Source: Candidatus Ozemibacter sp. (lineage in GTDB: Bacteria; Muiribacteriota; Ozemobacteria; Ozemobacterales; Ozemobacteraceae). From it: a DNA stretch of 32,609 nt. The stretch spans positions 1-32,609 of the forward strand of contig JASURT010000011.1 in NCBI GenBank assembly GCA_030446435.1, given 5' to 3'. The notes beneath the pieces are model-generated. The model had not been told where the DNA came from and ran no database searches. It worked only from the letters and a program-made list of their open reading frames with translations. Positions 13,376 through 19,898 of the stretch are shown here, one piece after another (position 1 is the stretch's first letter; every line of letters begins with the position of its first letter). Made by a program: the position numbers and the translations under genes.

Positions 13376-13747
13376 TCAGATATCTTCTTTTATGGAGTCG
13401 AGTTTTCGCAGAAGAACTTTTTCAGAGATTTTACCAGGTTTGAAAATCGTTTTAAGAACCTCATATGCTTTTCTCGCTTTTTCGTGATTGCCGCAGGTAA
13501 AAATATCAATCTGTACCGAACAATGTTCGGGCCAGCTGTGCAATGTTATGTGAGACTCGGTTAAAAGAGCTGCTGCGGTGTAGCCGTCAGGAGAAAACTG
13601 GTGGTATCTGACCAGAATACAATTCAAACCAGATTCCTGAACTGTCTGTTCAAGAATTTGCCCGCCCTTTTCGCCTGATTTCAGCAGTTCAACCGGGCAG
13701 ACAGAGAAATCAGCAATGATATGAATTGAATTTGGCATAGTTTTCAT
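13376..13747 (-). CDS. speD: S-adenosylmethionine decarboxylase proenzyme, prokaryotic class
   Basis: Signature 'LLTESHITLHSWPEHCSVQIDIFTCG' containing the pyruvoyl-forming Glu-Ser. Confidence 0.92.
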   Translation of the reverse strand: MKTMPNSIHIIADFSVCPVELLKSGEKGGQILEQTVQESGLNCILVRYHQFSPDGYTAAALLTESHITLHSWPEHCSVQIDIFTCGNHEKARKAYEVLKTIFKPGKISEKVLLRKLDSIKEDI

Positions 13748-13753
13748 TTTGTT

Positions 13754-15295
13754 TTAAAGAGCCCAAAGATCCCATCCTTCTTCATAATAGGACTTGATAA
13801 CATGGGTGTCAATCGTATTCACTTCGGTTTCAATTTCATCGATATCATTGGGAAAAACTCCCATAGATTTAAGATATTCGGTATTAACGAACTTGTTTTC
13901 AACTTTGATTTCGATGTTGTTCCAGTCCAGTGCGGCATTTGAAGCCATTACGAAGCCCCATTCGCCAAATGATGGAACATAGGCATGATAGGCTTTCGCT
14001 TCGAGTCTTACGGTCTCAGAAGCAGTAGCATTGGCATAAAGAGGGTTTTCAATGGCTGCAAAGGTATTTCTGATGCACCAGAAAGCTTTATGTGAATAAA
14101 GCGGTGATGTGGCCTGGGTAACTATTATGCCACCGCGGCTGAGCTTGTGGCTGAGAAGCCGGTAAAAAGTTCTTGAATAAAGACGGCTTAAGGTAAGATT
14201 GTCAGGGTCAGGAAGGTCGATAATAATTACATCATAAATGTTGTTGTCGGTTTCGAGAAATTTCCAGGCGTCGTTATTGACGATTCTGGTTTTAGGGTTG
14301 CGCATCGAATCTTTGTTCAATTTTCGCATTATGATGTTATCTCGCGCAAAGTTGGTGATTGCCGGGTCTATATCGACCACAGTAAGGGATTTTACCTCGT
14401 TGAATTTCAGAACTTCCCGAGCGGCTAGTCCATCGCCGCCACCTATGATCAGGATGTTTTCGCGGGCATGGGCAGCCGATAATGCTGGTAATACCAAAGA
14501 TTCGTGATAGCGATATTCGTCCTGAGAACTGAACTGAATGCTGCCGTTGATAAACATACGTATATCGGCCCGGGTTCTGGTTACAATCACTCTTTGATAA
14601 GGCGTCTGGGCACTGTAGATTATTTCGTCGCGATAAAGGCTGTCTTCGGCCAGAGAAGATATTCGATCAGAATAGAAAAAGCAGGTTGAAAGCAGAATCA
14701 GGGCTGTAACCGTAAGTATCGTCAGACCCTTTTTATCGACGATTTTCTCTTTGAAAACAGCTATGGCACCACCGCCAACCGCGACATTGATGATACCGAA
14801 AAGGAGACTGGTGCGAACCAGACCGAGTCTTGGCACAAGCACCAGCGGAAAAAGCAATGAAGCAAAAAGAGCTCCGATGTAATCGGCGGTCATGACATTT
14901 GAAAAGAGAATCTTTAACGTGCTGTGCTCTTTGAGTATGCGCAGAATAATGGGAATCTCAAGACCAATCAGAGTCCCGACCGAAACCGAGATGATGAACA
15001 GAAATGGTGAATAATTTTCAAGATATGAAAAGGCAAAAAACAGAATGATCGAACTCATTCCGCCCAATACGCCGGTCAAAACCTCGACCAGAATGAACCA
15101 GTCATGTAGTCTTCGATTTATAAACCTCGAAAGAAAAGAGCCCAGACCCATAGAGGTCATGAAAAGACCTATAACCAAAGAAAACTGATATACTGAATCG
15201 CCGACAAGGTAACTCGAAATCGTTCCCGCCAGAAGTTCATAGACTAATCCGCAAACTGCAATGAGAAATACTGAAAATAAAAGATATAACTGCAA
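13754..15295 (-). CDS. speE: Polyamine aminopropyltransferase (spermidine synthase family) with multi-TM N-terminal domain
   Basis: ~7 TM segments in the first ~210 aa; then 'DEYRYHESLVLPALSAAHARENILIIGGGDGLAAREVLKF', 'VDIDPAI', 'YDVIIIDLPDPDNLTLSRLYSRTFYRLL'. TTG start with upstream GAAAGG. Confidence 0.88.
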   Translation of the reverse strand: MQLYLLFSVFLIAVCGLVYELLAGTISSYLVGDSVYQFSLVIGLFMTSMGLGSFLSRFINRRLHDWFILVEVLTGVLGGMSSIILFFAFSYLENYSPFLFIISVSVGTLIGLEIPIILRILKEHSTLKILFSNVMTADYIGALFASLLFPLVLVPRLGLVRTSLLFGIINVAVGGGAIAVFKEKIVDKKGLTILTVTALILLSTCFFYSDRISSLAEDSLYRDEIIYSAQTPYQRVIVTRTRADIRMFINGSIQFSSQDEYRYHESLVLPALSAAHARENILIIGGGDGLAAREVLKFNEVKSLTVVDIDPAITNFARDNIIMRKLNKDSMRNPKTRIVNNDAWKFLETDNNIYDVIIIDLPDPDNLTLSRLYSRTFYRLLSHKLSRGGIIVTQATSPLYSHKAFWCIRNTFAAIENPLYANATASETVRLEAKAYHAYVPSFGEWGFVMASNAALDWNNIEIKVENKFVNTEYLKSMGVFPNDIDEIETEVNTIDTHVIKSYYEEGWDLWAL

Positions 15296-15336
15296 TTGAT
15301 TTCAACCTTTCAGCGAATGAGTAGAAAATAAACCCA

Positions 15337-15358
15337 AAGAGGGCAAAAAGACCCTCTT
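15337..15358 (-). terminator. Putative terminator after the DUF350 gene
   Basis: AAGAGGG-CAAAAAGA-CCCTCTT inverted repeat; T-rich but interrupted tract on the minus side (TTTGGGTTTATTTT). Confidence 0.55.
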
Positions 15359-17857: not shown

Positions 17858-17887
17858 AAGCGCCTGAATTCTTTTTTTCAGGCGCTT
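17858..17887 (-). terminator. Intrinsic terminator downstream of the ATP-grasp/esterase pair
   Basis: AAGCGCCTGAA-8 nt-TTCAGGCGCTT perfect 11-bp stem; minus-strand side runs into TTTTCATTT. Confidence 0.7.
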
Positions 17888-17934
17888 AAGCAGTTGTTTT
17901 CTCAGGTTTTCAGAGAATCATTTCAATATTTTTT

Positions 17935-18741
17935 TTAAATAGAATGAAAGTTTTTAAGAAATTTTTCGCGCTCTTTGGGTTTCATACGGTGCTGACTTGT
18001 TAAAAAGCCTGATTTATCCATCTTCTCCAGGAAGTAGGTGATCATCTTTTTCCACCAGGGCCAGTCATGATTGACATCGAAGCCCCACAGGTCCAGCAAA
18101 ACCGGAATGTCGTTTTCGTGCAGATTTTGACAAAGAATCCGGGCTTCGCCTATCCATTCTTCCCAGGCGCCCTGGCCACTGCATACGATAAGAAGATTGT
18201 TCTGCAGCTTTTTTACAATCTTTGGGTCGCTCAGGTCGCGGGAAAACATTATTGGGTTGTTGTAATAGACATCCTGGTTGAAAAAACCATCGAGAGTGAA
18301 GCCGATGTCATAACAGCCGCTCAGGGCGATGCCGAAGTCAAAAGATTCCGGGTGTTTCAAAAAGAAATTAACGGTATGAAAAGCGCCAAAACTACAGCCA
18401 TGCGTGATGATACCGGCATTTTTATGTCCATCGGCAAGTATGTGCGGAACAACATCGTTGACTATGGCGTGGTCGTAATCATTGGCGCGTCTGGCTCTGT
18501 CTGCGGGGTGGGCTTTGCTGAACCAGCTTTCATGATCGAGGCTGTCTACGCAATAAACCTGCAACTTGCCCGCTTCGATAAAGGGTGCAAGTGTGTCGAT
18601 CATGCCGAAATTTTCGTAATCGAAAAAGCGGCCTTCCTGAGATGGAAAAACCATCATGGGTTTGCCCTTATCACCGTAAACAAGCATTTCCATCGGTCGG
18701 CCCCAGGCCTGGCTTGGGATTTTTCTGAATTCTCTTTTCAT
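17935..18741 (-). CDS. Esterase family alpha/beta hydrolase (putative-esterase-like)
   Basis: Nucleophile elbow 'THGCSFGAFHTVNFF' (GxSxG), C-terminal catalytic-His-like 'GFDVNHDWPWWKKMI'. Confidence 0.8.
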   Translation of the reverse strand: MKREFRKIPSQAWGRPMEMLVYGDKGKPMMVFPSQEGRFFDYENFGMIDTLAPFIEAGKLQVYCVDSLDHESWFSKAHPADRARRANDYDHAIVNDVVPHILADGHKNAGIITHGCSFGAFHTVNFFLKHPESFDFGIALSGCYDIGFTLDGFFNQDVYYNNPIMFSRDLSDPKIVKKLQNNLLIVCSGQGAWEEWIGEARILCQNLHENDIPVLLDLWGFDVNHDWPWWKKMITYFLEKMDKSGFLTSQHRMKPKEREKFLKNFHSI

Positions 18742-19898
18742 CAGGCCTCCCTGATGATGTCGTCAATGATTTGACGCATTTCTTTTTCGTCTTTGGCGCG
18801 TGGCAGATAGCCCCAGTGTCCCATTACCGTGTATTCGATAGGGTTCATGGGCTGACTGTGAACGATTTTTTCGCCCCATTTCTGGTAGAGCTGGTCATGA
18901 GAAAGGGCGTAATGCCTGTCGTGTTTTCTTCCCACGAATCCGCAGTGGTAGAGGCGTTCAAATTTTCTTTTTGACTCTTGACCGGCCATGATTGCTGCCC
19001 ACCAGTCGTAAACGTCGATGTCGCAGGCAAAATTGAACATATGAGTTGAAAGGCCGCCTGGGGGTCTCATGTTGATTTCAAGGGCTTTCAGGCTGCCATC
19101 TGCGAGTCGGAAAAATTCAATATGGAAGAATTTCTCTTTGATTCCGGCTGATTTAACCACTTCTCTGCCAAATTTTTCGAGGTCGGCAGGAATTTTTTTA
19201 ACTGAGTAATACCAGACGTTTTCGTTTTGTTTGACCAGATTATGAATGTCGTTGCTGAAGATGTGAGAGGTGAAGAAAACAATGTTTCCGTTCTGGTCGG
19301 TTAGACCGTCGAAAGACTCGATATCGCCTTTGACGTATTCTTCCATGAAATAATCATATGACTGCTTAACCGAAAAGAAATGTTTCAGGTCGGCCAGATT
19401 GTTGATGGTATAGGTGTCGGCTGCGCCAACCCCGATGTCAGGCTTTATGAAAACCGGATAGTTGTCATTGATGAAGTCAAGACACTGATCGAGATCTTTT
19501 ACCAGGGTACCTTTGGCTACCGGTACACCGGCGCGGGTAAAGACGTCTTTCATTTTTGACTTGCGTTTCATGAATTGAAGATCGTCTGGTTTTGGCCCGG
19601 TTACGTCAAATTCTTTTCTGATTTCTGCTTCGAGTTCGATCCAGGGTTCAAGGTGTGATTCTACACGATCGATTGTCCCAAGATTGTTCGCGAAGAAATG
19701 GCAGGCGTTGATTACTTCAGAATAGTTTTCGAGCTGGCTCACTTTATAGTGACCGGTTAAACTGTTTCTGACCCGGCTGTCCAGGGCTTCGTCAGGAAGG
19801 TCTGAGATGCCGAAAACTCTAACGCCGTACTTTGCCAGACATTCAACAAATTGGGAAAAATGTGCAGGATAATGAGGTGAAAGATAGACTAAATTCAT
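18741..19898 (-). CDS. ATP-grasp domain carboxylate-amine/thiol ligase-like protein
   Basis: 'DDLQFMKRKSKMKDVFTRAGVPVAKGTLV', 'YPVFIKPDIGVGAADTYTINN', 'FMEEYVKGDIESFDGLTDQNGN', 'FHIEFFRLADGSLKALEINMRPPGGLSTHMFN'. Stop overlaps the esterase ATG (TGATG). Confidence 0.87.
   Translation of the reverse strand: MNLVYLSPHYPAHFSQFVECLAKYGVRVFGISDLPDEALDSRVRNSLTGHYKVSQLENYSEVINACHFFANNLGTIDRVESHLEPWIELEAEIRKEFDVTGPKPDDLQFMKRKSKMKDVFTRAGVPVAKGTLVKDLDQCLDFINDNYPVFIKPDIGVGAADTYTINNLADLKHFFSVKQSYDYFMEEYVKGDIESFDGLTDQNGNIVFFTSHIFSNDIHNLVKQNENVWYYSVKKIPADLEKFGREVVKSAGIKEKFFHIEFFRLADGSLKALEINMRPPGGLSTHMFNFACDIDVYDWWAAIMAGQESKRKFERLYHCGFVGRKHDRHYALSHDQLYQKWGEKIVHSQPMNPIEYTVMGHWGYLPRAKDEKEMRQIIDDIIREA

What the first reader, a model, noticed from the sequence alone, without database searches (positions are those of the whole stretch)
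13376..19898. PspA-less polyamine/ATP-grasp/DUF350/DUF4178/esterase locus: best candidate for an uncharacterised system
Eight consecutive minus-strand genes combine SpeD, membrane-fused SpeE, DUF350, a tiny exported protein, two zinc-ribbon DUF4178 proteins, an esterase and an ATP-grasp ligase. Sequence: motifs support each family, and several junctions show translational coupling (TGATG overlaps at 18741 and 15869). Established knowledge: DUF350 (YjfL), YjfC-type ATP-grasp, SpeD/SpeE-like and DUF4178 genes have been linked by comparative genomics, often with PspA. Inference: here they may make a polyamine or amine conjugate at the membrane (SpeD/SpeE supply the amine, ATP-grasp the amide bond, esterase removal or editing), with DUF350/DUF4178 as the membrane component. 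The lack of PspA in this window and the added mini-protein make it a distinct variant.
Basis: partly seen in the sequence, partly recalled or inferred. Interest (0 to 1): 0.8.

Follow-up and report, generated by a model that had tools for sequence, protein, structure and literature searches.

The report
Known polyamine-envelope operon beside unrelated pair
Six of the eight genes form a conserved membrane operon built around a polyamine-type enzyme and a tiny exported protein that ends in lysine in every copy examined, while the other two genes are an unrelated, widespread pair that merely sits next door.

Summary
The eight genes are real, at the stated coordinates, in a Candidatus Riflebacteria genome. 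They are not one system. ATP-grasp and esterase (17935-19898) are a separate two-gene unit: orthologues occur in 20 of 24 family genomes, 12 of them lacking the other six genes, and in Chloroflexi, Synergistales, Negativicutes and Rhizobiaceae. A terminator hairpin lies between the units. The ATP-grasp is L-amino-acid-ligase-like, not YjfC/glutathionylspermidine-type.

The other six genes (13376-17772) are a genuine module. Across 40 Riflebacteria genomes, DUF4178 and membrane SpeE occur in the same 13; the mini-protein is in all 13; SpeD tracks the module in the family. The same gene set occurs on replicons of Novosphingobium, Ralstonia, Burkholderia, Tritonibacter and Gemmatirosa. It matches the SpeE-7TM/DUF350/DUF4178 operon published by Ravi et al. 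2024, here without PspA, so it is a variant of a known kind.

New observations: the mini-protein is under strong purifying selection and ends in lysine in every copy found, often its only lysine past the export signal. Charge patterns put the SpeE catalytic domain outside the cytoplasm. Best model: the module decarboxylates SAM and aminopropylates an amine at the membrane. The acceptor is unknown; the mini-protein's terminal lysine is a testable candidate.

The parts
13376..13747 (-). SpeD, class 1b S-adenosylmethionine decarboxylase; self-cleavage/pyruvoyl motif LLTESHITLHSWPE and catalytic FTCG intact
   Evidence: PF02675 E 5e-30, TIGR03330 above cut-off; alignment to 2iii/1tlu
13754..15295 (-). 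Membrane SpeE: 7 TM helices fused to an aminopropyltransferase domain (residues about 222-513) with all tested active-site residues kept
   Evidence: NF002956 603 bits; AlphaFold pLDDT 88.8 and Foldseek to 1uir/3anx/6bq2; active-site columns identical in 12 of 13 lineages, one D-to-E change in Alteromonas
15329..15366 (-). Terminator-like 16-bp hairpin between DUF350 and speE (possible attenuator)
   Evidence: not conserved in all relatives
15397..15621 (-). DUF350 (YjfL-like), half-length form with a 2-TM hairpin, 74 aa
   Evidence: PF03994 46.6 bits, profile positions 5-65 of 133; congener starts at the same Met
15681..15869 (-). Exported mini-protein, 62 aa; N-terminal signal/TM, basic tail, C-terminal Gly-Lys
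   Evidence: A3 alignment: R43, G61, K62 invariant in 16 sequences; dN/dS about 0.04; present only in genomes with the module
15869..17161 (-). Large DUF4178 protein: zinc ribbon, DUF4178, TM, beta-sandwich (jelly-roll-like) domain, TM
   Evidence: PF13785 75.9 bits; start corrected; low-confidence AlphaFold model, only the beta domain at pLDDT about 85
17164..17772 (-). Small DUF4178 protein with N-terminal zinc ribbon
   Evidence: PF13785 49.7 bits
17858..17887 (-). Intrinsic terminator (11-bp stem, T-rich tail) separating the ATP-grasp/esterase unit from the module
17935..18741 (-). Alpha/beta-hydrolase ('esterase') of the neighbouring pair; not part of the module
   Evidence: sub-threshold PF00756; pair conserved without module
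18741..19898 (-). ATP-grasp ligase (ATP-grasp_4, L-amino-acid-ligase-like) of the neighbouring pair; not part of the module
   Evidence: PF13535; best PDB hit 4wd3 L-amino acid ligase

Best explanation
Two independent units lie side by side. Unit 1 (13376-17772) is a variant of the SpeE-7TM/DUF350/DUF4178 envelope operon: SpeD makes decarboxylated SAM, and the membrane-anchored SpeE transfers its aminopropyl group to an amine acceptor at the membrane. DUF350 and the membrane-anchored zinc-ribbon DUF4178 protein form the membrane scaffold or sensor, and the exported mini-protein is a partner or target of the enzyme. The product (a polyamine or an aminopropylated envelope component) would then adjust the charge or stability of the envelope. 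Unit 2 (17935-19898) is a separate ligase/hydrolase pair with no demonstrated tie to polyamines. Shown here by sequence evidence: the split into two units, the strict co-occurrence inside unit 1, conserved SpeD and SpeE active sites, and the conserved mini-protein. Inferred: the membrane reaction, the roles of DUF350/DUF4178 and the envelope function.
For: Co-occurrence in 40 Riflebacteria genomes: DUF4178 and membrane SpeE (E below 1e-60) in the same 13 genomes; mini-protein in 12 of them by profile and in the 13th, G016, by position. In the family, SpeD is present in 9 of 9 module genomes and 0 of 15 others. Among 72,556 plasmid records, 14 encode DUF4178S, the same 14 encode DUF4178L, and all 14 encode full-length SpeE; gene order in Novosphingobium is SPFH, DUF4178, DUF4178, small ORF, DUF350, SpeE, oxidoreductase, SpeD. 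Unit 2: orthologues in 20 of 24 family genomes, 12 without the module; in G004, same genus as G011, the pair lies directly next to HflC with no module; pairs in Chloroflexi, Synergistales and Negativicutes and in Peptoclostridium and Pararhizobium. Terminator between the units. Active sites intact.
Against: In g1 and most g4 genomes the two units stay adjacent, and in L066/L068 only 57-65 bp separate them with no clear terminator, so read-through or a functional link there is not excluded. No product, substrate or phenotype is known. Arginine decarboxylase-type genes exist with or without the module, which fits ordinary spermidine synthesis equally well.
Confidence: 0.66

Rival explanations
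1. One eight-gene system as first proposed: SpeD/SpeE make an amine, the ATP-grasp joins it by an amide bond, the esterase edits it, DUF350/DUF4178 hold it at the membrane.
For: Adjacency kept in two genera; short intergenic gaps in L066/L068.
Against: The pair is wider than the module and mostly occurs without it; the module occurs without an adjacent pair in G010 and G007; no overlap of the two gene sets among the listed plasmid records; terminator between them; wrong ATP-grasp type; a 785-aa transporter gene lies between them in L063/L064.
Confidence: 0.06
2. Plain polyamine synthesis: the module is simply this lineage's spermidine (or aminopropylagmatine) synthase, anchored in the membrane, and the other genes are regulators.
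For: Only one SpeD and one good SpeE in the genome; an arginine-decarboxylase-type gene is present; active site fully conserved.
Against: Does not explain the strict coupling to DUF4178 and an exported mini-protein, the 7-TM fusion, nor why relatives without the module have no SpeD at all.
Confidence: 0.25
3. The mini-protein is the substrate: SpeE aminopropylates its exposed C-terminal lysine outside the cytoplasm.
For: C-terminal Lys in every copy found, about 29 sequences in 3 phyla, against a background of 12% and 5% of ORFs ending in Lys; in six of eight representative lineages it is the only Lys after residue 25; positive-inside pattern puts the catalytic domain outside; Cys-poor catalytic domain.
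Against: Decarboxylated SAM is made in the cytoplasm and would need export; no protein-lysine aminopropyltransferase of this family is known to me; topology rests on charge counts only; Alteromonas has no mini-protein in its operon.
Confidence: 0.12

Closest known systems
SpeE-7TM/DUF350/DUF4178 operon with CesT/Tir-PspA (second group of Ravi et al. 2024, PMC11237479)
   Same: 7-TM-fused spermine/spermidine synthase-like protein, DUF350 and DUF4178, plus a small exported/lipoprotein gene
   Different: No PspA and no CesT/Tir gene here; SpeD inside the cluster; two zinc-ribbon DUF4178 proteins; half-length 2-TM DUF350 instead of the 8-TM form; a secreted basic mini-protein whose relation to their Ctha_1186 lipoprotein could not be tested
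DUF4178/mini-protein/DUF350/SpeE/oxidoreductase/SpeD cluster of Novosphingobium sp. ES2-1 (NZ_CP063446)
   Same: Same six gene types in the same relative order
   Different: Adds an SPFH-domain gene and an FAD-dependent oxidoreductase, both absent from the window module
Third group of Ravi et al. 2024: PspA, DUF350, glutathionylspermidine-synthetase-like ATP-grasp
   Same: Polyamine-type gene and DUF350
   Different: Its ATP-grasp is of the glutathionylspermidine synthetase type; the window's ATP-grasp is ATP-grasp_4/L-amino-acid-ligase-like
P. aeruginosa PA4773-PA4774 (speD2/speE2; PMC11107197)
   Same: Class 1b SpeD next to a second SpeE
   Different: PA4774 is 349 aa, identified there as a thermospermine synthase; membrane fusion and DUF genes are not reported in the passages read

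Membership tests
SpeE-7TM/DUF350/DUF4178 envelope operon (Ravi et al. group 2) | SpeE-like domain fused to N-terminal 7 TM | tested here: met
   NF002956 match and 7 hydrophobic peaks over 64 sequences
SpeE-7TM/DUF350/DUF4178 envelope operon (Ravi et al. group 2) | DUF350 and DUF4178 genes in the same operon | tested here: met
SpeE-7TM/DUF350/DUF4178 envelope operon (Ravi et al. group 2) | CesT/Tir-PspA dyad | tested here: not met
   No PspA match in the genome at E 1e-3, assembly 84% complete; no such gene in the cluster. PspA does lie beside the module in G016 and beside SpeD in G017/G033
SpeE-7TM/DUF350/DUF4178 envelope operon (Ravi et al. group 2) | Ctha_1186-type lipoprotein | tested here: inconclusive
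   Mini-protein present; Burkholderia counterpart carries a lipobox-like LFSC, the window copy does not; their domain model was not available
YjfC / glutathionylspermidine-synthetase-type ATP-grasp system | ATP-grasp of the GSP_synth family | tested here: not met
   PF13535 ATP-grasp_4; nearest PDB 4wd3
L-amino acid ligase (ATP-grasp) | Peptide or amide ligase activity | not testable with these tools
   Only sequence similarity, E 7e-8 to 4wd3
Class 1b AdoMet decarboxylase | Self-cleavage Glu-Ser site, catalytic His and Cys | tested here: met
   Aligned to 2iii and 1tlu
Aminopropyltransferase (SpeE) | dcSAM-binding and DxxDP catalytic residues | tested here: met
   D360, D363, P364, YHE 263-265, Q254 invariant in 64 sequences and in 13 lineages

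The most novel reading that the evidence does not exclude
The module is a protein-modifying system outside the cytoplasm: decarboxylated SAM from SpeD reaches an extracytoplasmic aminopropyltransferase through its own 7-TM domain, and the enzyme adds aminopropyl groups to the conserved C-terminal lysine of a secreted mini-protein, making a polyamine-tailed envelope peptide (compare, from memory, the lysine-linked polyamines of diatom silaffins).
Probability: 0.1. Interest if true: 0.9.

Novelty: new variant of a known kind. Interest (0 to 1): 0.52.

Why it matters
It separates a true conserved module from chance neighbours, extends a barely described polyamine-linked envelope operon to Riflebacteria and to PspA-less contexts, and points to a conserved exported mini-protein with a C-terminal lysine as a concrete candidate for the missing acceptor or partner. 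That makes the open question of what membrane aminopropyltransferases modify directly testable.

Tried and rejected
Eight-gene single system: rejected on synteny, co-occurrence and terminator evidence. YjfC-type ATP-grasp: rejected by family search. Anti-phage defence: PADLOC gave only shared-fold or weak hits (mad2 over the methyltransferase-like part of SpeE). HflK/HflC as part of the module: they stay beside the esterase where the module is absent (G004, L065), so they are neighbours only. A conserved partner explaining the ATP-grasp/esterase pair: neighbours differ in every lineage read, so no function was assigned. Structure of the large DUF4178 protein: model too poor (pLDDT 56), Foldseek hits are generic beta-sandwiches. 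Li et al. 2019 (AdoMetDC, polyamine-independent role) is not held, so it could not be read.
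Full report
What is there. The window lies in a Candidatus Riflebacteria genome (named relatives; contig G000:C63). Start sites were corrected for three genes.

Two units. tblastn of the window genes on relatives shows the ATP-grasp/esterase pair adjacent in nearly every family genome examined, usually with no SpeE module beside it. 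In G004, a member of the same genus as G011, the pair lies directly next to HflC where G011 carries the six-gene module. In G010 and G007 the module lies on other contigs away from any such pair. In L063/L064 a 785-aa transporter gene separates the units. Phylum-wide, esterase orthologues of 50% identity or more occur in 20 of 24 family genomes; 12 of these lack the module. The pair recurs in Chloroflexi, Synergistales and, with gene order reversed, Negativicutes, and in Peptoclostridium and Pararhizobium. An intrinsic terminator (17887-17858) lies between esterase and DUF4178S, with a promoter-like site after it; the hairpin is not seen in every relative.

The module. In 40 Riflebacteria genomes DUF4178 and membrane SpeE at E below 1e-60 occur in the same 13. 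The mini-protein profile finds 12 of them and no others; the thirteenth, G016, has a divergent small exported protein in the corresponding place. Thirteen of 13 against 0 of 27 would have probability about 1e-10 if the genes were independent; related genomes are not independent, so this overstates the significance. SpeD is present in all 9 module-bearing family genomes and in none of the 15 others, whereas an arginine-decarboxylase-sized PF02784 protein is present with or without the module. Outside the phylum, the 14 plasmid records with DUF4178S are exactly the 14 with DUF4178L and all encode full-length SpeE. Annotated examples are Ralstonia wenshanensis and Novosphingobium sp. ES2-1; both add an SPFH-domain gene and an oxidoreductase-type gene.

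PspA. No PspA_IM30 match was found in G000; its congener and G010/G011 have only weak ones elsewhere. In other Riflebacteria families PspA flanks SpeE (G016) or lies divergent to SpeD (G017, G033). The PspA-less form is therefore a variant of a system whose relatives do use PspA, as published by Ravi et al. (PMC11237479).

Enzymes. SpeD keeps the self-cleavage site and catalytic residues. SpeE keeps the aminopropyltransferase active site in 64 relatives and across 13 lineages, with one D-to-E change in Alteromonas; its model matches spermidine/thermospermine synthases. Seven hydrophobic peaks, and K+R counts of 2.2, 2.9, 3.2 per sequence in loops 2, 4, 6 against 0, 0.2, 1.0 in loops 1, 3, 5, predict N-terminus in and catalytic domain out. 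The pattern is weaker in some distant sequences (G033 loop 6 has none). The catalytic domain averages 0.46% Cys, against 5 Cys in 285-286 aa for two stand-alone SpeE of the phylum. This is a prediction from composition, not a determined topology.

Mini-protein. Between DUF4178L and DUF350 (or next to SpeD in Ralstonia and Burkholderia) lies a 48-102-aa ORF with a hydrophobic N-terminus. In 16 aligned sequences only R43, G61 and K62 are invariant. dN is 0.13 with dS near saturation against the congener. Every copy found, including Gemmatirosa, Ensifer, Tritonibacter, Novosphingobium, Ralstonia and Burkholderia, ends in lysine. Caveat: copies in L134, L136, L137 and L139 were picked with a filter for terminal residues, so they do not count as independent tests. 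Background frequency of a terminal Lys is 12% and 5% in the two groups of loci. In six of eight representatives it is the only Lys after residue 25. Homology between the Gly/Ser-rich proteobacterial copies and the Riflebacteria copies rests mainly on position and shape. Alteromonas has no such ORF.

Mechanism. Shown by sequence: a linked SpeD, membrane aminopropyltransferase, DUF350, two DUF4178 proteins and an exported peptide. Inferred: aminopropylation of an amine at the membrane that alters the envelope. The acceptor is open: polyamine precursor, lipid amine, or the mini-protein lysine.

Novelty. The core operon is published; the Riflebacteria form, its independence from the ATP-grasp pair, and the terminal-lysine rule of the mini-protein were not found in the papers available to me. 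I therefore file it as a new variant of a known kind.

Noticed in passing
L087 (G010:C52) 5985-6584: An elongation factor P-like gene lies directly upstream of the SpeE/DUF4178 module in G010 (identified by eye from the translation); possibly chance, but EF-P/eIF5A are known targets of lysine modification.
   Followed up: no
L063 5414-7771; L064 10887-13244: A 785-aa RND-like transporter gene (by eye) is inserted between esterase and DUF4178S in two relatives.
   Followed up: partly
G000:C13:7165-8313 (L033): A second ATP-grasp paralogue, 40% identical, occurs in this and most family genomes, here without an adjacent esterase.
   Followed up: partly
L090 (G016) 5908-6885: A second SpeE-like protein without the 7-TM domain (about 25% identity) sits between PspA and the mini-protein; the 7-TM SpeE there has an in-frame TAG.
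   Followed up: no
   Followed up: partly
L074 10847-13642: A glutamate-cysteine-ligase-like protein (by eye) lies on the opposite strand next to the ATP-grasp/esterase pair in a Chloroflexi contig.
   Followed up: no
window 20137-23139: A 1000-aa exported clostripain-family (C11) protease, divergent from the ATP-grasp gene and syntenic in close relatives.
   Followed up: no
window 13321-13368: A strong 20-bp hairpin terminator between the convergent hflC and speD.
   Followed up: no
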